Source: Chamaelirium japonicum (Eukaryota; Streptophyta; Magnoliopsida; Liliales; Melanthiaceae). Taken from it: a DNA stretch of 64,000 nt. Location of the stretch: NCBI GenBank assembly GCA_947650365.1, contig OX393550.1, forward strand, positions 50,733,633 to 50,797,632, given 5' to 3'. The position numbers were made by a program, and so were the translations under genes. Positions 10,553 through 55,306 of the stretch are shown piece after piece (position 1 is the first letter of the stretch; every line of letters starts with the position of its first letter). The notes under the pieces were generated by a model. That model worked only from the letters and a program-made list of their open reading frames with translations. It made no database searches and was not told the origin of the DNA.

Positions 10553-10596
<44 letters not shown>

Positions 10597-11114
10597 CCAT
10601 ATCTCTCTCTCCCTCCCGTATCTCTCTTCCCCCCTTATCTCTCTCTTCCACCGATCTCTCTCTCTCTCTCTCTCTCTCTCCATCTCACTCTCTTCCCCCG
10701 ATCTCTCTCTATCTCTCTTTTTCTCTCTTCCCCAAATCTCTCTCTTTGTCTCTTTCTCTTCTAATCGAACAAGATCACAATCGTCCCTGCATACCCAAGA
10801 ACCCCCATATCGCACCCCCTCTCTTTCCCTCGTGAATATCTCTTCTCTTAAAACCTATCGTAGTCGTCCAAGTACCTAGCCCCATCTGAGAACCTGAGTC
10901 TCCCCCTCTCTGAAAAAATCTACTATCTCATCCCACACACTCTCTCTCTCTCTCTCTTCCCCCACGATCTCTCTTTCTCCTCCCTCTCTCTCTCTTCCGT
11001 CTCTCTTTCTCTCTTCACATCTCTCTCTCTTTCCGTATCTCTCTGATCTCCGTATCTTTCTCTCTCCGTCTTTCTCCCTGATCTCTGTAACTCTGTCTCC
11101 GTATCTCTCTCCGA

Positions 11115-11164
<50 letters not shown>

Positions 11165-11465
11165 CCGATCTCTCTCTCTCTCTGTTTTTCTCTGGAAAAT
11201 TTTCAGCACATCTACGCTATAATCGTTGCCCATGGCCTATCAGCACACTCTAAGTGTTGGGTCCTGCAACTCCATGTCTCTTGAATTGCAGTGGGCCCCG
11301 CAGTTGTAGCGTACGCAGGATGTGCTAAAAAATTCCCTATCTTTCTCCTTCTCTCTCTTCCCCATGATCTGTCTATCTTCGTCTCTCTCTCTTCCCCACG
11401 ATCTCTCTCTCTCTCTTCCCCTGATCTCTCTCTCTTTTTCTCCCGGCCTCTTTCTCCCATGATCG
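10543..11465. repeat. CT-rich low-complexity region with (CT)n blocks
   Basis: About 0.9 kb of pyrimidine-rich plus strand with pure (CT)n blocks at about 10560-10592, 10656-10680 and 11123-11161. Long Ser/Leu- or Arg/Glu-rich frames over it are products of the dinucleotide repeat and not genes. A short ordinary stretch (11200-11340) interrupts it. Confidence 0.9.

Positions 11466-13756: not shown

Positions 13757-13897
<141 letters not shown>

Positions 13898-16388: not shown

Positions 16389-16422
<34 letters not shown>
16389..16422. repeat. poly-C tract (34 nt)
   Basis: Uninterrupted C run followed by A and T runs, inside the hAT element. Confidence 0.97.
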
Positions 16423-40646: not shown

Positions 40647-41204
40647 TGAAGCCCTCTCTTATGTGTTGTTACACATGGGCCTCTTTTGTAGAGTCAGAAT
40701 CCTTCTTCCGTGTGTGACACACAGCTATTTCGCGTAAATCCTATTAAAAACCATATAAACAAATTCGGTGTTCGGAAATAATTCAATGAAGGGGCAAATT
40801 TCGGAGTTCGGAAAATATCCGAAAAATTCAGAAAAGGTTCGAGAGAAGTTCGGAAATACAAAACATAAAATATATTATATTACATTACTAATTTTATATT
40901 AATATATATATAACTAAATTAAATAGGTGGCACAAAAAAATAGAAATTTATAAATTATTTGTAAAATTCATGAATTATTCGTGAATGATTCGGGAGTTAT
41001 TTGGGCATGACTCATGTTGCCAACTACAGAGAATAATTCGTTTGCCTTTGGGTTCACGAATTATTCATGAATTTTTTAATAATTCGAAGAATATTGTTAC
41101 TACATTAAAACCAACTATAAAGATGATAAATACTCATTTAATGGTCATTTGATGTTAATCAGAAATTCATTAGTACTCTCTTTCTTTCTCTCAAGTGAAT
41201 CACA
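40647..41204. repeat. tandem ~0.5-kb repeat, copy 1, with an insertion
   Basis: Words from GGGCCTCTTTTGTAGAG through CGTAAATCCTATTAAAAACC and ACTATAAAGATGATAAATAC to GTTAATCAGAAATTC and a TC tract recur at 55440-55655 and 55935-56101. About 340 bp (40755-41097, rich in TTCGG and GAATTATTC) is extra in this copy. Confidence 0.7.
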
Positions 41205-41217
41205 CACTACAAAAAAA

Positions 41218-41722
41218 ACAGTTATTACCGACGGACAATATCCGTCGGTAATATTAAAATTTCGTCGGTAATATTATATAGCGACGGAAGATATTTCCGT
41301 CGCTGGCTGTCGGGAAAAAAGGCGTCGGGGAAAACAATACGACGGACCAAATATTACCGTCGGTATTAATAATTAATACCGACGGTAATTAGAACACCGT
41401 CGGTAATATTTAACAAATTTAAAACTAATATAATATAGTATTGCCGACGAACTATAAGAATCCGTCGGTAATACTATATATATTACCGACAAATATATAT
41501 ATTACCCGTCGGTAATAATATATATATTACCGACCAAATTAATATCACCGTCGGTAATACTATATATATTACCGACGGATATATATATTACCCGTCGGTA
41601 ATACTATATATATTACCGACGGATATTATATGCCGTCGGCAAATCATTAATAATTTAAAAAAAATAAAAATATTATTACCGACGGAATAATTCATTTCCG
41701 TCGGTAATAAGTATCTTTTTTT
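41218..41722. repeat. CACTA left subterminal array of TACCGACGG motifs
   Basis: About twenty copies of ACCGACGG/CCGTCGGT, mostly as facing pairs with 10-30 bp of A/T between them. Subterminal motif clusters are where the TnpA-like protein of CACTA elements binds. The right end has the same motif. Confidence 0.9.
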
Positions 41723-41759
41723 TTTTAATAAATTTACCTAAATAATGTTATTTAATTCC

Positions 41760-41907
41760 TGTGATTCAATACCACAATATATTACCACAATTTATCAAAT
41801 ATTACCACAATTTATCAAATATTACCACAATTTATCAAATATTACCACAATTTATAAAATATTACCTAAATTGATAAAAAATTACAGCAAATTATCAAAT
41901 ATTACCA
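41760..41907. repeat. 20-bp tandem repeat
   Basis: Unit ATATTACCACAATTTATCAA, four near-perfect copies followed by about three diverged ones. Confidence 0.9.
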
Positions 41908-42000
41908 CAGTTCCCGGCCGACAATTATAGATAGAAGAAAAAATAACCATATATTACAAAACAATATTTACACAATCCAGAACTGAGAGATGATACATGT

Positions 42001-42124
42001 CCTATCTCAACCACCCCCGCCCGCCACCAACGCCGGTGCTCTCATCGATCCCCTGACGCCGCCCTATCTCAACCACGCCCGCCCACCACCAACGCTGGTG
42101 CTCTCATCGATCCCCTGACGCCGC
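42001..42124. repeat. 62-bp tandem duplication
   Basis: Two copies (42001-42062 and 42063-42124) of a GC-rich unit starting CCTATCTCAACCAC and ending CCCTGACGCCG. On the minus strand a splice acceptor (ATTAATTGCAG... just right of it, about 42131-42145 region) could make this a terminal exon. That is speculative. Confidence 0.8.
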
Positions 42125-42165
42125 CCTGCTCCTGCAATTAACATGTATTTGTTAAAAAAATGGTT

Positions 42166-45100
42166 TATATCTATAACTGAGTCTAAGCGTTAAAAAATGA
42201 TAAGTTAGCGTGTTTCGATTTTGAAATAGGTTTGGATTCGATCCGATCGTCATCGGCTCGGCATCCGGTAATTTGAACTTGGAATTATTCCGTATTTCGG
42301 ACTTGCGAGCGGGTTCTAATTGGATATTTGACCAATTTACGCTCCGATTCACCGATTTAGAGTCTAAGTGTTGGAAAATCATAAGTTAGCGTGTTTCGGA
42401 TATGAAATAGGTTTGGATTCGATCCGATCGTCATCGGCTCGGCATCCGGTAATTCGAACTTGGATTTATTCCGTATTTCGGACTTGCGAGCGGGTTCTAA
42501 TTGGATATTTGACCAATTTACGCTCCGATTCACCGATTTAGAGTCTAAGTGTTGGAAAATCATAAGTTAGCGTGTTTCGGATATGAAATAGGTTTGGATT
42601 CGATCCGATCGTCATCGGATCGGCACCCGGTAATTCGAAGTTGGAATTATTCCGTATTTCGGACTTGCGAGCGGGTTCTAATTGGATATTTGACCAATTT
42701 ACGCTCCGATTCACCGATTTAGAGTCTAAGTGTTGGAAAATCATAAGTTAGCGTGTTTCGGATATGAAATAGGTTTGGATTCGATCCGATCGTCATCGGA
42801 TCGGCATCCGGTAATTCGAAGTTGGAATTATTCCGTATTTCGGACTTGTGAGCGGGTTCTAATTGGATATTTGACCAATTTACGCTCCGATTCACCGATT
42901 TAGAGTCTAAGTGTTGGAAAATCATAAGTTAGCGTGTTTCGGATATGAAATAGGTTTGGATTCGATCGGATCGTCATCGGCTCGGCATTCGATAATTCGA
43001 ACTTGGAATTATTCCGTATTTCGGACTTGCGAGCGGGTTCTAATTGGATATTTGACCAATTTACGCTCTGATTCACCGATTTAGAGTCTAAGTGTTGGAA
43101 AATCATAAGTTAGCGTGTTTCGGATATGAAATAGGTTTGGATTCGATCCGATCGTCATCGGCTCGGCATCTGGTAATTCGAACTTGGATTTATTCCGTAT
43201 TTCGGACTTGCGAGCGGGTTCTAATTGGATATTTGACCAATTTACGCTCCGATTCACCGATTTAGAGTCTAAGTGTTGGAAAATCATAAGTTAGCGTGTT
43301 TCGGATATGAAATAGGTTTGGATTCGATCCGATCGTCATCGGATCGGCACCCGGTAATTCGAAGTTGGAATTATTCCGTATTTCGGACTTGCGAGCGGGT
43401 TCTAATTGGATATTTGACCAATTTACGCTCCGATTCACCGATTTAGAGTCTAAGTGTTGGAAAATCATAAGTTAGCGTGTTTCGGATATGAAATAGGTTT
43501 GGATTCGATCCGATCGTCATCGGATCGGCATCCGGTAATTCGAAGTTGGAATTATTCCGTATTTCGGACTTGCGAGCGGGTTCTAATTGGATATTTGACC
43601 AATTTACGCTCCGATTCACCGATTTAGAGTCTAAGTGTTGGAAAATCATAAGTTAGCGTGTTTCGGATATGAAATAGGTTTGGATTCGATCCGATCGTCA
43701 TCGGCTCGGCATCCGGTAATTCGAACTTGGAATTATTCCGTATTTCGGACTTGCGAGCGGGTTCTAATTGGATATTTGACCAATTTACGCTCCGATTCAC
43801 CGATTTAGAGTCTAAGTGTTGGAAAATCATAAGTTAGCGTGTTTCGGATATGAAATAGGTTTGGATTCGATCCGATCGTCATCGGCTCGGCATCCGGTAA
43901 TTCGAAGTTGGAATTATTCCGTATTTCGGACTTGCGAGCGGGTTCTAATTGGATATTTGACCAATTTACGCTCCGATTCACCGATTTAGAGTCTAAGTGT
44001 TGGAAAATCATAAGTTAGCGTGTTTCGGATATGAAATAGGTTTGGATTCGATCCGATCGTCATCGGATCGGCACCCGGTAATTCGAAGTTGGAATTATTC
44101 CGTATTTCGGACTTGCGAGCGGGTTCTAATTGGATATTTGACCAATTTACGCTCCGATTCACCGATTTAGAGTCTAAGTGTTGGAAAATCATAAGTTAGC
44201 GTGTTTCGGATATGAAATAGGTTTGGATTCGATCCGATCGTCATCGGATCGGCATCCGGTAATTCGAAGTTGGAATTATTCCGTATTTCGGACTTGCGAG
44301 CGGGTTCTAATTGGATATTTGACCAATTTACGCTCCGATTCACCGATTTAGAGTCTAAGTGTTGGAAAATCATAAGTTAGCGTGTTTCGGATATGAAATA
44401 GGTTTGGATTCGATCCGATCGTCATCGGCTCGGCATCCGGTAATTCGAACTTGGAATTATTCCGTATTTCGGACTTGCGAGCGGGTTCTAATTGGATATT
44501 TGACCAATTTACGCTCCGATTCACCGATTTAGAGTCTAAGTGTTGGAAAATCATAAGTTAGCGTGTTTCGGATATGAAATAGGTTTGGATTCGATCCGAT
44601 CGTCATCGGCTCGGCATCCGGTAATTCGAAGTTGGAATTATTCCGTATTTCGGACTTGCGAGCGGGTTCTAATTGGATATTTGACCAATTTACGCTCCGA
44701 TTCACCGATTTAGAGTCTAAGTGTTGGAAAATCATAAGTTAGCGTGTTTCGGATATGAAATAGGTTTGGATTCGATCCGATCGTCATCGGATCGGCACCC
44801 GGTAATTCGAAGTTGGAATTATTCCGTATTTCGGACTTGCGAGCGGGTTCTAATTGGATATTTGACCAATTTACGCTCCGATTCACCGATTTAGAGTCTA
44901 AGTGTTGGAAAATCATAAGTTAGCGTGTTTCGGATATGAAATAGGTTTGGATTCGATCCGATCGTCATCGGATCGGCATCCGGTAATTCGAAGTTGGAAT
45001 TATTCCGTATTTCGGACTTGCGAGCGGGTTCTAATTGGATATTTGACCAATTTACGCTCCGATTCACCGATTTAGAGTCTAAGTGTTGGAAAATCATAAG

Positions 45101-46822
45101 TTAGCGTGTTTCGGATATGAAATAGGTTTGGATTCGATCCGATCGTCATCGGCTCGGCATCCGGTAATTCGAACTTGGAATTATTCCGTATTTCGGACTT
45201 GCGAGCGGGTTCTAATTGGATATTTGACCAATTTACGGTCCGATTCACCGATTTAGAGTCTAAGTGTTGGAAAATCATAAGTTAGCGTGTTTCGGATATG
45301 AAATAGGTTTGGATTCGATCCGATCGTCATCGGATCGGCATCCGGTAATTCGAAGTTGGAATTATTCCGTATTTCGGACTTTCGAGCGGGTTCTAATTGG
45401 ATATTTGACCAATTTACGCTCCGATTCACCGATTTAGAGTCTAAGTGTTGGAAAATCATAAGTTAGCGTGTTTCGGATATGAAATAGGTTTGGATTCGAT
45501 CCGATCGTCATCGGCTCGGCATCCGGTAATTCGAACTTGGAATTATTCCGTATTTCGGACTTGCGAGCGGGTTCTAATTGGATATTTGACCAATTTACGG
45601 TCCGATTCACCGATTTAGAGTCTAAGTGTTGGAAAATCATAAGTTAGCGTGTTTCGGATATGAAATAGGTTTGGATTCGATCGGATCGTCATCGGATCGG
45701 CATCCGATAATTCGAACTTGGAATTATTCCGTATTTCGGACTTGCGAGCGGGTTCTAATTGGATATTTGACCAATTTACGCTCCGATTCACCGATTTAGA
45801 GTCTAAGTGTTGGAAAATCATAAGTTAGCGTGTTTCGGATATAAAATAGGTTTGGATTCGATCGGATCGTCATCGGCTCGGCATCCGGTAATTCGAACTT
45901 GGAATTATTCCGTATTTCGGACTTGCGAGCGGGTTCTAATTGGATATTTGACCAATTTACGCTCCGATTCACCGATTTAGAGTCTAAGTGTTGGAAAATC
46001 ATAAGTTAGCGTGTTTCGGATATAAAATAGGTTTGGATTCGATCGGATCGTCATCGGCTCGGCATCCGATAATTCGAACTTGGAATTATTCCGTATTTCG
46101 GACTTGCGAGCGGGTTCTAATTGGATATTTGACCAATTTACGCTCCGATTCACCGATTTAGAGTCTAAGTGTTGGAAAATCATAAGTTAGCGTGTTTCGG
46201 ATATGAAATAGGTTTGGATTCGATCCGATCGTCATCGGCTCGGCATCCGGTTATTCGAAGTTGGAATTATTCCGTATTTCGGACTTGCGAGCGGGTTCTA
46301 ATTGGATATTTGACCAATTTACGCTCCGATTCACCGATTTAGAGTCTAAGTGTTGGAAAATCATAAGTTAGCGTGTTTCGGATATGAAATAGGTTTGGAT
46401 TCGATCCGATCGTCATCGGATCGGCACCCGGTAATTCGAAGTTGGAATTATTCCGTATTTCGGACTTGCGAGCGGGTTCTAATTGGATATTTGACCAATT
46501 TACGCTCCGATTCACCGATTTAGAGTCTAAGTGTTGGAAAATCATAAGTTAGCGTGTTTCGGATATGAAATAGGTTTGGATTCGATCCGATCGTCATCGG
46601 ATCGGCATCCGGTAATTCGAAGTTGGAATTATTCCGTATTTCGGACTTGCGAGCGGGTTCTAATTGGATATTTGACCAATTTACGGTCCGATTCACCGAT
46701 TTAGAGTCTAAGTGTTGGAAAATCATAAGTTAGCGTGTTTCGGATATGAAATAGGTTTGGATTCGATCCGATCGTCATCGGATCGGCATCCGGTAATTCG
46801 AACTTGGAATTATTCCGTATTT
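42166..46822 (-). repeat. 181-bp satellite array, ~25.7 copies, higher-order organised
   Basis: The word GTCTAAG recurs every 181 bp from 42181 to 46706 (25 intervals exactly). The last copy breaks off at about 46822. Monomers fall into variants by three sites (CTCGGC/ATCGGC, CATCCGG/CACCCGG, GAACTTGG/GAAGTTGG). They follow a four-monomer order over 42362-45257. Each monomer yields a 68-codon open frame. Because 181 is not a multiple of 3 these frames do not join, and they are not taken as genes. Confidence 0.97.
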
Positions 46823-46867
46823 AAAAGAAAAACAGAGGCTACATCATTACCATGAGAGAAAGAGAGA

Positions 46868-46920
46868 CCATTTACGATTCGATTTACTGATTTATAGTCT
46901 AAGTGTTGGAAAATCATAAA
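46868..46920 (-). repeat. detached 181-bp repeat fragment
   Basis: CCATTTACGATTCGATTTAC to GTTGGAAAATCATAA is a diverged piece of the monomer, separated from the main array by about 45 bp of other sequence. Confidence 0.8.
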
Positions 46921-46997
46921 TGTGATAATATGATCTAAACTCAAATTAGTAAGATTCATATTTTTTGCTAATATTATAAAGATTAGTAAGTACCTGA

Positions 46998-48697
46998 TCA
47001 TGAGGATGAGCCACCGCTAGACCGGCTTATGAATTCATTAAATTTACGCTCCAGTTCCCTGCGAGCTTGTCTTTCCTCATCGAGGGCCTTCTTCTCCGCC
47101 TCAACCCTCTGCTCGAGGGCTTGCCTCTGCTCTCGCTCCACCTCCATCCTCTGCTCGAGGGCCTGCCTCTGCTCTCGCTCCGCGTCTAGCGCAGACTGCA
47201 GCTGAGTGATAGCACCGGTCTGGGTGTCCCGTGCCCTCGAGCGCATACCCTCTCGTCCAAAGTAGGAGGAGGGCGTGACTCCAAGGCCCGTACAGAGGAC
47301 ACGGCCGTGCGTGGCAGGTCTCAGCACAGTATCCATCGCTGAGTCGACAGATACTGAGCTGGAGGAGGAGCCGGCCTCGCCCGACGGGGTCACCAGAAGT
47401 CGCATCCTCTCCTATATAAAAGCAACCAATGATATTCAATGATATTTTATGGCATATGTATAAGAATATATTAACAGTAATTTAATTACTTACCACTTGC
47501 GAGGCAACCCTGTCGTCCAGAAATGCCCCATCGACACGCCGCCTCCTAGAGGCCTCAAAAAGGTCAATCCTATTAGGCTCGTGGCCCAAGGACTGTGTCT
47601 GTTGGACATATAAAATAAATAGACGAGTTAATATAACATGTATAGAGCTTTAAATAATAACAATGTTTGTATCATTTACCAGCTGCTGGGCAAGCTGGGG
47701 CATGGAGGTCCTCCCCTTCACTGGAGCAGGTGTCGTCGAGGCACTTCTATTCTGCTTGCCTATAGCAGATTTATTCTGTGCAATCGATTAAATTTTGAAA
47801 CATCAATACAAATTTTTAGTATAACATTAAAACAAGTACGAATCAACAAAATTATAATTATACCTGAAAGTTAGGGGTGGCCCAGTGAGCGACCAAAAAC
47901 TGTAGAATGTGTAGCGGTGGCGCGTCTCTCGTCCCAGCCGCAGCCTGTACCTCCTCAGCCGGCTGGCCGACCAAGTAACCGTAGAGCTTGTAGAGCTCGT
48001 GACGGTAATCCCTGTACCGCTCACCCATCGTCTTCCACAAGTCCTCCCGATGGGTGTCGGTTTCCATGTTCTCCCATTTAAATTTCTCCTGCAAAATCAA
48101 TTTAGAAACAAGTCATTTTATCAAATCAAATTATAAAGAAGTACGATATTATTCTAAAATGCTTTAATGAAACTAACGTACCAAAAACTGCTGATACATC
48201 CTCTCCTTATAGGATGCATCAATGTTCTTCCACCCCCTTAACCCCACAATCGGGGCATTCCTCTCCTCCCGTACTATCATGCCGACCCACGTGGCGGCGT
48301 CAGAAGCGTGCTCGCCCACAAAGGTATGGCCGCTCCACTGTAGGGACAGCGGCTCGCGTAAGGCCGACAAGCGCCGGGCCGTCGTCACGCCCCGGTCGCC
48401 TACGTACCTGGTCGACCCTGCAAATAAAATATACATCAGTACTGAAGAAGTATTTACAACATGTATAAAACGTTAGATCTAAACATTACCTGTGGGCGTA
48501 GACGCTGCAGCCGAGTGCTGAGCAGTGCTCGAAGCTCCGGAGGCTGCGACCACAGCAGGAGCTGGTGTGGAGAGAGGAACAGCACTACCAGATCCGGACG
48601 GCTCAGCCTCGGACCCTGGGGTGGCAGCCGGAGCGCTCTCAGCTACCCTACCCCTGCCTCTGCCTCTGCCTCTACGAACATATGACCGTGATGCCAT
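46998..48697 (-). CDS. CACTA TnpA-like protein (Transposase_24 / Ptta-En-Spm family), six exons
   Basis: Exons by minus-strand splice sites: 48697-48490, 48417-48182, 48088-47864, 47775-47680, 47598-47494, 47411-46998. All introns are GT-AG and the frame stays open throughout. The N-terminus is Arg/Gly-rich (RRGRGRGRGR) then Ala/Ser/Pro-rich. The middle carries KFKWENMETDTHREDLW, TSMPQLAQQL, then GHEPNRIDLFE and VDGAFLDDRV, the pattern of the plant Transposase_24 family. The C-terminus is a coiled coil (EREQRQALEQR repeated) ending in a Ser/Gly tail. In CACTA elements the TnpA-type protein binds subterminal motifs and helps excision. Here it sits between two inverted arrays of the 181-bp repeat. 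No disabling lesion was seen. Confidence 0.8.
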
Positions 48698-48704
48698 CTG
48701 AAAC

Positions 48705-48866
48705 AATTTAATTTACATATGAAACAGTAAGATTTAAGATTTACATATGAAACAATATGAAACAGTTTGATTTACATATGAAACAGTATGATTTACATAT
48801 GAAACAATATAAAACAATATGAACCCGCTCGCAATATGAAACAATATGAAACAATATGAAACAGTT
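48705..48866. repeat. short scrambled tandem repeat (ATGAAACA units)
   Basis: Units GATTTACATATGAAACAGTA and AATATGAAAC recur about ten times. In their midst is GAACCCGCTCGCAA, a 14-bp piece of the 181-bp monomer. It lies between the TnpA ATG and the inverted array. Confidence 0.85.
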
Positions 48867-48867
48867 A

Positions 48868-49503
48868 GACTCTAAATCGGTTAATCGGATCGTAAAGTGG
48901 TCAAATATCCAATTAGAACCCGCTCGCAAGTCCGAAATACGGAATATAATTCCAAGTTCGAATTATCGGATGCCGATCCGATGACGATCGGATCGAATCC
49001 AAACCTATTTTATATCCGAAACACGCTAACTTATGATTTTCCAACACTTAGACTCTAAATCGGTGAATCGGAGCGTAAATTGGTCAAATATCCAATTAGA
49101 ACCCGCTCGCAAGTCCGAAATACGGAATAATTCCAAGTTCGAATTACCGGATGCCGAGCCGATGACGATCGGATCGAATCCAAACCTATTTCATATCCGA
49201 AACACGCTAACTTATGATTTTCCAACACTTAGACTCTAAATCGGTGAATCGGAGCGTAAATTGGTCAAATATCCAATTAGAACCCGCTCGCAAGTCCGAA
49301 ATACGGAATAATTCCAACTTCGAATTACCGGATGCCGATCCGATGACGATCCGATCGAATCCAAACCTATTTCATATCCGAAACACGCTAACTTATGATT
49401 TTCCAACACTTAGACTCTAAATCGGTGAATCGGAGCGTAAATTGGTCAAATATCCAATTAGAACCCGCTCGCAAGTCCGAAATACGGAATAATTCCAAGT
49501 TCG
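48868..49503 (+). repeat. 181-bp satellite, inverted array, ~3.5 copies
   Basis: GACTCTAAATCGG starts at 48868, 49051, 49232 and 49413 (spacing 183, 181, 181). The sequence is the reverse complement of the 42166-46822 monomers. It ends at 49503 inside a monomer, directly joined to transposase coding sequence. Confidence 0.96.
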
Positions 49504-52500
49504 TCCGAAATCTATAACCGTTCACGATATAACCATCGTACGATATTGCGTCTTGCAAAGGACTACAAGATAAGCGCCAGAGATCCTCATTCATCAGCGG
49601 ATCGTGGTTGTCGTGCAGCTCCTGTGCCTATAATAACCACACGACATTCATGATATGAACACATAATTATTGTTCGGTAATGGATGTCAATGAAATTCAG
49701 TAATGATGTGAATACTTACGTGTTTCTCGAACCACGATGGGAATTCACGATCATGAATTTGGGGAGCATTTCGAATACCCCGATTATTAATGATGGCTTT
49801 ATGCTTCCTGTTTTACCGGTTATGAATTAGATTATAATTAGCACATATACTTAATGAATGGACTGAAAGAATGAGTAAATGATCGTAAAATGCTTACTCA
49901 ATGAATGGCCACACTTCATCACATTGGCGCAACACATACATATGTGCCTGTTGAATCTCATCTACAGACAATCGACGGGTTTTGCCTCCTCCTACAGGTC
50001 TACCCATTTCGGCAAATATAGACAGACCCCCATCGAAGTCTATTGGACCACCGTCATAGTTCCGCTCAAGTTGATTGAATCGCGTGTCTATACCATGTAG
50101 GTATCTTGAGCAGAATGTTAGACATTCTTCTGCTAGGTATCCTTCAGCAATTGATCCCTCCGGACGACTTTTATTACGAACATATGATTTCAATGTTCGC
50201 AAGTACCTAATTTGAGAAAAAAATATTTGTATGAATATATCAAGAACGATCAAATACATTGTGCGAATGAGACGAGACGATTACCTCTCGATAAAATACA
50301 TCCACCGGTAATGAACTGGGCCGCCGAGTTTGGCCTCATTTGCCAAGTGAACGGTCAAATGCACCATGACATCAAAGAATGAAGGTGGAAATATCATCTC
50401 TAACTTGCACAATGTGAGCGCAATATCCCTCTCCATCTGTTCAAGTTGGTCCACTCTAAGTACCTTCGAGCACAACTGTCTGAAAAAAGTGCTGAGCTCA
50501 ATTAACGGACCGGACACCTCTTCGGTTAAATTCCCACGTATAGCAAGAGATAACAATCGCTGCATAAGAACATGACAATCGTGGCTCTTTAATCCAGACA
50601 ACTTCCGGCCGTTCTCTTGCACGCATCGTGCGATATTCGAAGAATAACCGTCTGGCGTTTTCACAGACCGTAGGAATGCACATAAGGCTGCCTTTTGCTG
50701 TGAGCTCATGGTGTAGCATGCAACTGGCAACACATACTTATCCCCAATCTCTTGGGGATGAAGTGATTTTCGGATGCCCAACTCCTTAAGATCGAGACGA
50801 GATTTAAGATTATCCTTCGTCTTACCGTCGAGATTCAGCAGTGTTCCTATAATGTTGTCACACACATTTTTCTCAATATGCATGACATCCAAGTTATGCC
50901 GCAAGAGTAGGCTGCTCCAGTACGGTAGTTTAAAGAAAATACTCTTCTTCTTCCAGTTATGCTCACGCGTTGAATCTTCATGCGTTCTCTTCTTTTTACC
51001 TTTTCCAAGTGCCACGGCATCAAGCTGATCCAATTCGCACAAGACTTCTACCCCCGAAAGCTGCTCCGGGGCCTTTGCAAGTTCCTTCTTGCCGTTGAAA
51101 GCTCTTTTGTTCTGCCTCCACTTATGGCCGTCAACAAGGAATCTTCGATGGCCCATATAACAGAACTTGCCTCCGTTCTTCAATCGTAATGAATCTGTCT
51201 CCTTATTGCATGTAGGGCACGCCAATTTTCCTTTAGTACTCCACCCGGATAAGTTGGCATATGCAGGAAAATCGTTGATGGTCCATAGAAGTGCCGCATG
51301 CATCCGAAAATTCTGGCGCAACGAGGCATCATACGTATCGGCCCCAACTTCCCATAACTCGTTCAACTCCTCAATCAACGGCTGCAAGTAAACGTCAATA
51401 TCATTACCAGGCGACCTGGGTCCGGGAATGAGCAAGGAGAGCATTGTGTATGGCTTTTTTAAGCACATCCAGGGAGGCAAATTGTATGGAACTAGGACAA
51501 CTGGCCAAATGCTGTACGACACACTCATATTCCCAAAGGGATTGAAGCCATCGCTAGCAAGCCCTAACCTGACGTTGCGAACTTCACATGCGAATTCAGG
51601 ATATGTATGATCAAAATCTTTCCACGTCAGAGAGTCGGCCGGATGTCTCATAATCCCGTCATCTGTACGTTCTCGTGCATGCCACCTCATGTGCTCAGCA
51701 GTCTTCGATGACATAAACAACCTCTGAAGCCTGTCCCTGAGCGGGAAGTATAGGAGAACCTTTGCAGATACATTTTTCTTCCTTCGACTGGTACTAGACT
51801 CGGCATCCGTCTCTTTATATCTCGTTGCTCCGCATATGTGGCATGACCGCGCATGTTCGTACTCTTTCCGGTACAACATACAATCGTTCACGCATGCATC
51901 AATTTTCTCATAACCCAGACCGAGATCTTTAATTGTCTTCTTCGCCTCGTAGAATGATTTCGGTACTGTCTCACCCATAGGAAAAGCCTCTTTCAGCAAC
52001 TCTACCAACATATTAAATGACTTATTACTCCAACCATTGAGGCACTTCAAATGAAGAAGCTTTACAGTGAAAGAGAGTTTTGAAAACTTCTCACACCCCG
52101 GGTATAGAGGTTGTTCGGCATCTTTAAGCAATCTGTAGAACTTGTCCGCTTCGATATTGGGCTGATCACCTGACGGTGTTTCCGTGCCTATTCCACCTTG
52201 CAAATCATGTATCATACCCTGCATGTCATCGTCATCGTCTGTATTAATATTATCATCAGCGATCACTGTGTTTGAAGTTTCACCGTGAGCTGCCATGGGG
52301 ACTGCATCTAGCTCCTCACCGTGCGAGAACCAACGGGTATAGGTAACGTCAATGCCACGCATTACCAGATCAACCTCACATTCCTCTCGAACCTTCCTAA
52401 TCACCCTTCCGCAGTCTATACAGGGACACACAATTTTTCCATCAAGCGGTGCAAGACGCTCAAATGCAAAATCCAGAAATTTCCTGACTCCTTCTCTGTA

Positions 52501-52554
52501 CTCTTGGCTCATGCGATTCGAATTACGCATCCAACTCTTATCGATCGAAGACAT
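49504..52554 (-). CDS. CACTA TNP2-type transposase, C-terminus truncated by satellite
   Basis: Main exon 52554-50285 (start MSSIDKSWM), then 50206-49898, 49807-49720 and 49627-49504, all joined by GT-AG introns in frame. N-terminal transposase-associated domain with CPCIDCGR (residues about 42-50). TNP2 catalytic region with SDGFNPFG (D335), PGNDIDVYLQPL (D385, D387) and NDFPAYANLSGW (D428), the likely metal-binding acids. A zinc-like CPTCNKE follows, then a DUF4218 region (HNLDVMHIEKNVCDN, DCHVLMQRLL, PVHYRWMYFIERYLRTLK). The last exon opens the DUF4216 domain (YDGYIVNGYRFRT) and is then cut by the 181-bp repeat. The frame runs about 39 more codons into repeat and stops. The catalytic part is uninterrupted. 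Whether the loss of the C-terminus matters is unknown. Confidence 0.9.
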
Positions 52555-52619
52555 CTTCGTCTATCTGGCTATACAACACCTGACATATAATTTCAAACAA
52601 TGTTATAAGACTCCGCACA

Positions 52620-52775
52620 ATTTCGGTTTCGGTTCCCGGGTAGGTGGAGAATTAAATAGATGGGGTAATACTGAAATTAACAAATGGAGGCAACATAATT
52701 TGAACCTAGGACCTCGCAGAAACCAAAACTCTGATATCACGTGACCATCTTAAGCTTTTGGGTAAGATAGTTATC
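52620..52775 (-). mobile_element. SINE-like, tRNA-derived insert
   Basis: On the minus strand a TGATATCAGAG box A-like word (about 52729-52741) and CCTAGGTTCAAATT, a box B-like word (about 52698-52709), are spaced as in tRNA-derived SINE heads. TTTCTGCGAGGTCC lies between. Ends and target duplication are not resolved. Confidence 0.4.
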
Positions 52776-52789
52776 TAACATCTAGCTAG

Positions 52790-53573
52790 GCATTCCCTGT
52801 GACCATGACCTGACTGTCGAGCTGCTTAACTATGCTCATGAGTCGTCTCTAGCTTAATTAAGACCACTTACGTACAAACCCAGTTAGCCATATGCGTTTG
52901 GGACATATCCAGAGTTGCTTGGCTTAACCAACAGCCCTTGATAGCATCCTTTTGGGTTCAAAATTAAACGGGAACAACATTGGCTGCACACTTGCTGCAC
53001 CTGTTATTCACGTTTAAATGATCCACATGGACCGTCCCGATTGAGCCATAAGCAAGTACAGTGTACCAGTCGGGAAGTAAAAATGCTCTTGTCCTTTCTT
53101 GGGAAAAAAAAAATTTTAATTTCTTTTAACCATAATGATGCGTCCCGATCACAGCCGTCCGTTGCACAAAACCCCAATTGGCAGGCTGTGATTGGATGAC
53201 ACGCCATTCTGGTTAGGTATTCAGGTTAGAGGTTGGGGGTGAAAAGTAAACCTTCCATTGCGGTTGGTTTGTCGTGCATTCTAGAGGTCATAGGTCTGAG
53301 TCCACCAACAAATTGGCTCTTGTACGAGGGCGTCAGATGTTTGGCCGTCCAAGTGGACCTACTTGGCCTTGGTGAGCCAAATATTCAGCCAGAGTCTGAT
53401 GCTTGACTCAACCCTGATTCAGACTCAGGTGCGCCCCTCATTGTGACCGGTGGTACGGGCTTCCTGGTCTTGATTTTGGATCGTTTGTTTGGTTCTACAA
53501 AGGCACGTACAGTTCGGGTGCATGGCACGCGCACATCTCGAGCTAGTTGACCGCGGTCCCAACTATTAAACAA
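52790..53573. other. CACTA interior upstream of transposase, non-coding
   Basis: No recognisable protein or clear repeat. It probably holds promoter and 5' leader of the TNP2 gene. Confidence 0.5.
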
Positions 53574-53581
53574 CTACCACA

Positions 53582-54132
53582 CAGAGGCGGAGCCAATATA
53601 GGCCCAGTGGGGGCAGCTGCCCCCACTGAGATTAGCAAAAAAAAAAAAAAACTAATGCTATTTGTACAGTGTCAACAACACGTTGATAATCAACCAATGA
53701 AGTGGAGTTGGTTCAGAGATCTGATGGGTCTGATTTGTCAATGAGTAGTACACTTTGCCCACTGAAGTTTAGCTGAAAGACACTTAACCCCCCAATAGTT
53801 TAAGAACTACATTTTAACCCTTTCAATTAAGTTTTCATCAGATAAAAGATTACCAAATGAGAAAATAAAATAGTTGACAAAAGGGTGTATATGCTAACAT
53901 TTCAAACTTTAGGGAGCCATTTCTTTCTCTTTCTCTTTCTCTCCCTCTCTAGATAGTTATTCACGATTTTTTGTGTAATATTTTTTTCAATGGGAGATTT
54001 TTGCATGCCTATGAACTGAAAGCGGAATTTTTTTGTAGTCCATTCAAATCCTTTGTTAGTAGAAATTGGATAAAACTTTTAAAGCCAAGCAAAGGTTGCC
54101 CCCACTGGAGTGAATTTCTGGCTCCGCCACTG
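53582..54132. mobile_element. non-autonomous hAT MITE inside the CACTA, 551 bp
   Basis: Ends CAGAGGCGGAGCCAATA and (reversed) CAGTGGCGGAGCCAGAA. A perfect 8-bp target duplication CTACCACA (53574-53581 and 54133-54140) flanks it. It is related to the hAT at 15699-16693 in its ends and in the ACACTTAACCCCCC interior. Confidence 0.93.
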
Positions 54133-54149
54133 CTACCACACATCAATGA

Positions 54150-54430
54150 TCACCCACGAGGAGGAGGAGGAGGAGGAGGAGGAGCTCACCGGGGGGAGGA
54201 GGAGGAGGATCTCACCGGCCGGAGCCCACGAGGACGAGGAGGGACGACGGATGCCCACGAGGAGGAGGAGGGACGACGGATGCCGGATCTCACCAACCGC
54301 CGGTCGATCGGTCGGCCGGAGGGACGCGACGGGGCCGGGGAGGGGGGGAGGGAGGCCGGGGAGGGGGGGAGATGGGGGGGAGATTTAGAGAGAGAGAGAG
54401 GGCCGGGGGAGAGTTTCAGATCGAAATAGA
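54150..54430. repeat. GAGGAG/GGGGA-rich low-complexity block
   Basis: Purine-rich plus strand, with (GAG)n at 54157-54183 and (GA)n at 54389-54402. On the minus strand, in the orientation of the transposon genes, it would be a pyrimidine-rich 5' leader. The Glu/Arg/Gly frames here are not taken as protein. Confidence 0.7.
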
Positions 54431-54477
54431 ACAGAGAAGGCTAGGAGGGGATCGCTGAAATTAACTTATGGCAGGCG

Positions 54478-55290
54478 TTTTACCGACGGTAAATTTTACT
54501 TCCGTCGGTAAAAATATCTTTTATCGACGGCACAATAATATCTGTCGGTACAAATCCACCTTTTTACCGACGGATACTTAATGTCCGTCGGTAAAACTCC
54601 ACGACTAACAAACAAGTTCAATTTTTTCCAGAGGCTCGGTTTGGCACCCTGAGAACTGTCGGGACATTTTACCGACGGCAATTTAATTACCGTCGGTATT
54701 ATACCGACGGATAGATAAATTCCGTCGGTATAATCCCGACCAAACTTCAAGCTCAATTTTTCCCAGAGGCTCGGTTTGGCACCCTGAGAACTGTCGGAAC
54801 ATTTTACCGACGGAAACGTAATTACCGTCGGTACAGTGCCGACGGAAATATAATTTCCGTCGGTCTAATTAGTTATACCGACGGAACTTTTAAGTCCGTC
54901 GGTAAATAGTACGACGAAACTCTCCCTTCTATTTTTTTCCAGAGGCTCGGTTTTTACACTGAGTTTCGTCGGGACAATATTACCGACGGAAATTTTATTA
55001 CCGTCGGTATATGGCCGACGGAGATATTATAGCTGTCGGTAACATTGTTTATACCGACGGAACTACAATGTCCGTCGGTACAATATCACGACGATGACAT
55101 TTTGCCGACGGTTTATATGTTACCGTCGGTATAAAGTATATTACCGACGGTAAATATGTATACCGTCGGTATAAATATGCACAGAAAATTAAAAAAATTG
55201 AAGTTATAATACCGACGGATATTATTGTCACCGTCGGTAAAAAGTGTATTATTACCGACGGTGATAATAATGTCCGTCGGTAAAGACCCT
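54478..55290. repeat. CACTA right subterminal array of TACCGACGG motifs
   Basis: More than twenty ACCGACGG/CCGTCGGT words, again largely as facing pairs. A second layer is a longer tandem unit containing CAGAGGCTCGGTTT and CTGAGAACTGTCGG at about 54631, 54760 and 54940. Confidence 0.9.
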
Positions 55291-55306
55291 ATTTCTTGTA
55301 GTGACA

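What the first reader, a model, noticed from the sequence alone, without database searches (positions are those of the whole stretch)
41205..55303. CACTA transposon that carries its own satellite DNA in two opposed arrays around the TnpA gene
Seen: a 14.1-kb CACTA with target duplication ACA holds about 25.7 copies of a 181-bp repeat at 42166-46822 and about 3.5 reverse-oriented copies at 48868-49503. The six-exon TnpA-like gene (46998-48697) sits between them. The arrays are about a third of the element. Known: CACTA elements often have subterminal repeats bound by TnpA, and some carry internal minisatellites. A satellite of centromere-like monomer length in inverted flanking arrays is not a standard part. 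Inference: the element could seed satellite DNA at new sites, or the inverted arms could form a hairpin or small-RNA source over the TnpA gene.
Basis: partly seen in the sequence, partly recalled or inferred. Interest (0 to 1): 0.9.

Follow-up and report, generated by a model that had tools for sequence, protein, structure and literature searches.

The report
Jumping gene family carrying satellite DNA
This is one copy of a large plant transposon family in which arrays of a 181-base satellite repeat are a built-in part that travels and diverges with the element; similar cases are known, but the two opposed arrays around one transposon gene look like a new variant.

Summary
A CACTA element (41205-55303, TSD ACA) has a 25.7-copy, 181-bp array at 42179-46822 and a reversed 3.5-copy array at 48860-49503 around a six-exon TnpA gene. 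It is not unique. In this 1.52-Gb genome an exact 29-mer of the monomer occurs 30,055 times, the family's left end 1,628 times, the left-end/array junction 1,438 times and the right-array junction 591 times. Ten of ten copies read in full, chosen for identity to the window, are the same family; nine have 3-bp TSDs. All five array loci of a positional sample abut it too. The window copy is a deletion derivative lacking the TnpD 3' end and part of the right array. The left array is ancestral: diverged relatives have it in the same place with 79-82% identical monomers. The right array is a later, single-origin gain. Arrays differ by whole monomers or blocks, and recombination between them appears to have inverted TnpA at one locus. 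Satellite arrays inside CACTA elements are known (Chenopodium quinoa). New are the opposed pair, its long inheritance and the inversion. No free-standing array was found. The hairpin idea is untested.

The parts
41202..41204 (.). target-site duplication ACA, left copy
41205..41760 (+). left terminal/subterminal region with ACCGACGG / CCGTCGGT repeats (3' end of the element in gene orientation)
42166..46822 (+). left satellite array, 181 bp x 25.7 (TRF 42179-46822)
   Evidence: monomer string JEAFIKACBDACBDACHOHPQRZAM
46870..46919 (+). degenerate monomer edge between array and TnpA 3' end
   Evidence: (I1-I3)
46998..48697 (-). TnpA-like gene, exons 48697-48490, 48417-48182, 48088-47864, 47775-47680, 47598-47494, 47411-46998; 427 aa, PF03004
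48699..48863 (.). short AT-rich tandem repeats (TRF periods 10-59 bp; ATATGAAACA/GATTTAC) between TnpA ATG and right array
48860..49503 (-). right satellite array, reversed, 181 bp x 3.5 (truncated; 7.0 in six of the ten other copies read)
49500..49503 (.). deletion junction (TTCG microhomology): 752 bp of TnpD 3' sequence and probably some right monomers lost relative to eight of the ten other copies read
49504..52554 (-). TnpD transposase gene (Transpos_assoc, Transposase_21, DUF4218), 3' end lost in this copy; 1113 aa in 8 of 10 sampled copies
54479..55303 (+). right terminal/subterminal region with ACCGACGG / CCGTCGGT repeats (5' end of the element in gene orientation)
55304..55306 (.). 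target-site duplication ACA, right copy

Best explanation
The feature is one member, an internal-deletion derivative, of a high-copy, recently transposing En/Spm-type (CACTA) family whose non-coding regions include satellite DNA. The big array lies between the TnpA stop and the 3' subterminal repeats and is ancestral to the family. The reversed array lies between the TnpD end and the TnpA start and arose once, later, in one clade. Shown: the arrays move with the element and are inherited through long divergence. Shown by comparison: they differ between copies by whole monomers or blocks, as expected from unequal recombination or slippage. Shown at one locus, with a related rearrangement at a second: a TnpA segment lies inverted between the arrays, as expected if the opposed arrays recombine as inverted repeats. 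Inferred: the arrays are mainly tolerated passenger/spacer DNA, multiplied genome-wide by transposition and not by a separate satellite process.
For: Ten of ten fully read copies (top of the identity-ranked list of 40 scored of 612 candidates) are this family. Left arrays have 14.6-29.6 copies; right arrays 0.7-13, and none in L013. TSDs: 9 of 10 perfect, eight different triplets among them. The 8 copies with all parts differ from the window by 0-5 substitutions in 7,864 non-array bases, plus one small gap in two of them (the 54-kb GAG-rich stretch, where they share a 3-bp length difference, is left out); TnpA is intact in 9 of 10 and TnpD (1113 aa) in 8 of 10. Left arrays share a monomer order; differences are block losses such as LEAF (4 monomers), and right arrays are B-G dimers. 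Genome counts: 1,628 left ends, 1,438 left-end/array junctions, 1,542 TnpA 3' flanks, 591 right junctions, all controls 0. On C1, 73 of 88 exact left ends have the exact array junction 826-1024 bp inside. Old relatives L041 and L043: left array 81-82% to the monomer, TnpA 86-87%, no right array in L043. Element A on C1 has both arrays, closely matching right-array edges and the same odd first monomer. L044: inverted TnpA 5' part between arrays.
Against: The ten full copies were chosen by identity, so they over-represent the youngest. Counts use short probes and miss diverged copies. Exact-match lists leave 15 of 88 left ends without an exact junction, and 52 of 100 TnpA flanks on C1 without an exact left end in range. 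The single origin of the right array rests on two copies compared in full. Passenger status is inferred from absence of evidence for function. The near-universal presence of the left array could equally reflect selection for it.
Confidence: 0.75

Rival explanations
1. The opposed arrays are an RNA hairpin device: read-through from TnpD to the left array gives a transcript whose inverted arms (about 1.3 kb in copies with 7 right monomers) pair around TnpA, making small RNAs that silence or tune the family.
For: Opposed orientation, about 95-97% mean monomer identity between the two arrays, both arrays downstream of TnpD on the same strand, at least 591 junctions of the right array.
Against: The right array is absent in L032/C1:494788 and old L043, so the family lived without it. 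The near-identical copies with both arrays have evidently spread recently, which strong self-silencing would hinder; but they were picked for identity to a two-array copy. No RNA data.
Confidence: 0.12
2. The left array is a selected cis part (chromatin spacer, terminator or protein-binding array) needed by the element; nucleosome-like monomer length and fixed position reflect this.
For: Retained at the same place over about 13-14% TnpA divergence; exact junction behind 73 of 88 exact left ends; also kept in deletion copies L013 and L027; quinoa array also near the 3' end.
Against: The subterminal motif ACCGACGG/CCGTCGGT is absent from the arrays; copy number is loose (about 14-71 by distance on C1); no sequence relation to the quinoa 171-bp monomer.
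Confidence: 0.2
3. A host satellite, for example centromeric, was recently captured by the element, or the element inserted in satellite DNA.
For: Monomer length typical of plant satellites (recalled).
Against: 5 of 5 positional array loci are element-borne, 33 of 34 variant monomers lie near element marks, and old relatives carry a diverged array at the same place.
Confidence: 0.05
4. Assembly artefact.
For: Tandem arrays are hard to assemble.
Against: The same monomer-variant order, apart from block differences and a differing later part in L025, recurs at eleven loci with different flanks.
Confidence: 0.01

Closest known systems
Jozin-like CACTA elements of Chenopodium quinoa with a 171-bp satDNA array (Belyayev et al. 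2022, PMC8978399; abstract and passages read)
   Same: CACTA with Transposase_21; one array of about 30 nucleosome-length monomers near the 3' end; reported in several elements of the genome; dispersed by FISH.
   Different: No opposed second array mentioned in the passages read; monomers unrelated; the authors favour capture, whereas here the array is ancestral and has diverged with the element.
Tpn1 family CACTA of Ipomoea nil (PMC5105172; passages and figure legend seen)
   Same: CACTA with arrays of about 100-bp tandem repeats as family parts.
   Different: Those repeats are subterminal (122 bp at the 5', 104 bp at the 3' side); here the subterminal repeats are separate short motifs and the 181-bp arrays lie internally around TnpA.
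En/Spm of maize and soybean Tgmt* (PMC2613891, passages read)
   Same: TIRs starting CACTA, 3-bp TSD, repeated subterminal motifs, transposase plus a Ptta-type or DNA-binding protein.
   Different: No 181-bp arrays described in the passages read.
Helentron/Helitron elements with central satDNA-like arrays (reviews PMC12628747, PMC9659126; passages)
   Same: Mobile elements carrying and spreading tandem arrays; arrays of differing orientation are mentioned.
   Different: Other transposition mechanism; the arrays described there are central and also occur outside the elements; no TnpA/TnpD.

Membership tests
CACTA (En/Spm) superfamily | TIRs beginning CACTA | tested here: met
   CACTACAAAAAAAAC / TTTCTTGTAGTG
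CACTA (En/Spm) superfamily | 3-bp target-site duplication | tested here: met
   window ACA and 9 of 10 other copies
CACTA (En/Spm) superfamily | TnpD-type transposase (Transposase_21) | tested here: met
   E 2e-102; gene truncated in this copy, intact in 8 of 10 others
CACTA (En/Spm) superfamily | second protein of Ptta/En/Spm type | tested here: met
   PF03004 E 5.6e-17
CACTA (En/Spm) superfamily | repeated subterminal motifs at both ends | tested here: met
   37 exact ACCGACGG/CCGTCGGT, all in the first 500 or last about 820 bp of a 16,206-bp copy, none in arrays
CACTA (En/Spm) superfamily | transposition in vivo | not testable with these tools
   only inferred from near-identical copies with TSDs
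satDNA-carrying CACTA (C. quinoa type) | long satellite-like array inside the TIRs, in several copies | tested here: met
satDNA-carrying CACTA (C. quinoa type) | array near 3' end, monomer homologous to the quinoa one | tested here: inconclusive
   position agrees; monomer shows no similarity
Classical satellite DNA | large blocks independent of transposons | tested here: not met
   5 of 5 positional loci and 33 of 34 variant monomers are with the element; not a whole-genome scan

The most novel reading that the evidence does not exclude
The opposed satellite arrays are a functional recombination and expression module of the transposon: they let copies flip TnpA (turning it off or changing its strand) and make a double-stranded transcript that tunes TnpA dose, and gaining the second array preceded the family's recent burst.
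Probability: 0.1. Interest if true: 0.8.

Novelty: new variant of a known kind. Interest (0 to 1): 0.5.

Why it matters
It gives a clean case, perhaps still mobile, in which satellite-like DNA is multiplied and dispersed by a cut-and-paste transposon: about 5.4 Mb if each of the 30,055 exact 29-mers stands for one 181-bp monomer, about 0.36% of this genome, carried by a family with some 1,400-1,600 probe-positive ends or junctions. Near-identical copies with different array lengths make the unit of array change visible and its rate measurable. The opposed arrays give a natural test of inverted satellite repeats flipping a gene or making small RNAs.

Tried and rejected
Rejected: unique or assembly-made array (shared monomer order at eleven loci); host satellite capture at this locus; arrays as extra subterminal sites by sequence motif (no ACCGACGG/CCGTCGGT inside); monomer derived from element coding DNA (matches outside the arrays are the degenerate edges and chance-level words); relation to the quinoa monomer (none found; the consensus as typed from the passage is 169 letters, against 171 stated in the paper).

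Inconclusive: dN/dS of TnpA between copies (0.45-1.85 over six comparisons; small counts; three of six have stops, which were skipped). Concerted evolution of left against right arrays: the mean identities do not separate (canonical left-right 96.6%, element A left-right 94.9%, A right to canonical left 96.0%, A right to canonical right 95.4%). The species was not identified; 'plant' is inferred from the protein families. No other plant genome was available to me. One script compared TnpA copies out of register and printed meaningless differences; it was redone correctly. The monomer counts include six old-type monomers from the array beside L009 and a few cut one or two bases out of register.

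Results against: 15 of 88 exact left ends on C1 lack an exact array junction. Only 48 of 100 exact TnpA flanks have an exact left end in range and 34 the exact right junction. 43 of 88 exact left junctions lack an exact TnpA flank in the standard orientation within 13 kb; one junction has a flank in the opposite orientation, beside neighbouring elements. These lists hold exact matches only. Some long distances may contain nested insertions. L042 shows an old array without TnpA downstream; its left side was not read, but TIR-like sequence lies about 1.4 kb beyond. One of 34 variant monomers had no exact mark within 12 kb.

Full report
What is there. The window holds a complete-ended CACTA element at 41205-55303 with TSD ACA, a 181-bp x 25.7 array at 42179-46822 and a reversed 181-bp x 3.5 array at 48860-49503. 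Between them lies a six-exon TnpA gene on the minus strand whose spliced protein is a Transposase_24 (Ptta/En/Spm) member. To the right lies TnpD with Transpos_assoc, Transposase_21 and DUF4218. Both genes read leftwards, so in gene order the element is: 5' subterminal repeats, TnpD, reversed array, TnpA, large array, 3' subterminal repeats. The short motif ACCGACGG/CCGTCGGT fills both ends and is absent from the arrays.

This copy is a deletion derivative. Seven of ten other copies read over 20 kb carry 5-7 right monomers and one carries 13, all eight followed by 752 bp that end the TnpD gene with a DUF4216 domain. The window lost that stretch at a TTCG microhomology, leaving 3.5 right monomers and a truncated TnpD. 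The remaining two copies, L013 and L027, have other deletions.

It is one of many. A 601-bp array probe had 612 first-look candidates; 40 were scored and all are printed at 100% identity after rounding. The ten read in full were taken from the top of that list, so they are biased to the youngest. All ten are this element. Nine have perfect TSDs (GGG, TAT, ACC, ATT, TTG, ATT, ATG, AGT, AGA); L013 lacks its outermost left bases and shows no TSD. The eight with all parts differ from the window by 0-5 substitutions in 7,864 bases, TnpA is intact in nine of ten and TnpD in eight of ten. This indicates very recent amplification; activity today is inference.

Genome-wide counts with reversed-pattern controls of zero: 30,055 exact monomer 29-mers, 1,542 TnpA 3' flanks, 591 right-array junctions, 1,628 left ends and 1,438 left-end/array junctions, the last four with up to three mismatches. 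On contig C1, 73 of 88 exact left ends have the exact array junction 826-1024 bp inside. Distances on C1 imply left arrays of about 14-71 monomers in 45 pairs, the longest perhaps holding insertions.

Is the satellite ever free? The first 100 monomer places on C1 form six arrays at five loci. All five abut this family: left ends 82-93% identical at the four where they were read, TnpA 94-99%; the third locus is a right array. A rarer variant monomer gave 34 places on the first 89.85 Mb of C1; 33 (28 of 29 loci) lie within 12 kb of an exact element mark, against 4.1% of random positions. The exception lies 13 kb from an old-type TnpA flank. No free-standing array was found, but the whole genome was not scanned.

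History. Old-type monomers (1,401 places with up to two mismatches) were read at three loci. L041 and L043 show the left array in the same position between the left-end interior and TnpA, with monomers on average 81-82% and TnpA 86-87% identical to the young family; in L043 TnpA's upstream repeats run straight to TnpD without a right array, while L041 has a deletion there and cannot tell. The third, L042, is an array with TIR-like sequence beyond it and no TnpA in the part read. A further old array beside L009 has monomers 76-81% identical and 52 bp of TnpA 3' flank at 86.5%. C1:494788 also lacks the right array. Element A (C1, from about 420,924; TnpA 95.5%, TnpD 98%) has both arrays, closely matching right-array edges (the outer nearly identical, the inner offset by about 45 bp) and a shared odd first monomer. 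So the left array is ancestral and has diverged with the element, and the right array most likely arose once in a younger clade.

How it changes. The left arrays of the eleven copies share one order of monomer variants with block differences: loss of LEAF (four monomers) in the window and L023, nine fewer monomers in L009 and L011, a different later part in L025, and a truncated array in L013; right arrays are built of a B-G dimer (340 cut monomers, 34 sequences, six of them old-type). That is what unequal exchange or slippage predicts. Of 37 left/right junction pairs within 15 kb on C1, 33 have the standard relative orientation and four the opposite. Two of the four involve one right junction beside neighbouring elements and were not read; the other two were. 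L044 has array, reversed upstream repeats, reversed 457 bp of TnpA, reversed array, TnpD at 99.6%: an inversion between the opposed arrays with loss of the rest of TnpA is the simplest reading (about 2.8 kb of its left array was not read). L045 has a reversed right-array edge embedded in a forward array that then joins the TnpD 5' part by a deletion.

Mechanism. Shown: the arrays are carried and multiplied by transposition and vary by monomer units. Shown at one locus: a TnpA piece inverted between them. Inferred: they are mostly passenger DNA. The hairpin rival fits the layout but is untested, and the array pair being a later addition to the family argues against necessity. A selected cis role of the left array remains open.

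Comparison. C. quinoa CACTA elements with 32.5 copies of a 171-bp satellite near the 3' end (PMC8978399, passages) are the nearest case and make this a known kind. Tpn1 elements have 122/104-bp subterminal repeats (PMC5105172, legend). A separate route, a 40-bp tnp2 fragment becoming satellite, is known in Chenopodium (PMC7320549, abstract). In the search listings and the passages read, I saw no CACTA with opposed arrays around TnpA. Absence from print is not claimed beyond those searches.

Noticed in passing
L013 (G000:C76:394245-414244): A deletion derivative whose left array joins TnpD at one point occurs twice, about 6.8 kb apart with the same deletion junction and right end, as if tandemly duplicated.
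   Followed up: no
L029/L039/L030/L040 (C1:420000-434500) against canonical copies: Left-end subterminal DNA has diverged far more (81%) than TnpA (95.5%) and TnpD (98%), and TnpA dN/dS to the young family is 1.85 (42.5 against 7.5 changes): possible co-evolution of the binding protein and its sites; significance was not tested.
   Followed up: partly
L031 (C1:492800-494900): A family member lies directly beside the TnpA start and upstream repeats of an older relative (81% TnpA): nested or adjacent insertion within the family.
   Followed up: no
C1:425900-428800 (L030, about 290-550): Element A has about 260 bp of other sequence between left array and TnpA flank that the young copies lack; possibly a captured fragment.
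   Followed up: no
window 10553-11456: Dense CT-rich low-complexity block of several tandem periods; a 122-bp pure CT run at 13775-13896 and a 34-bp poly-C at 16389-16422.
   Followed up: no
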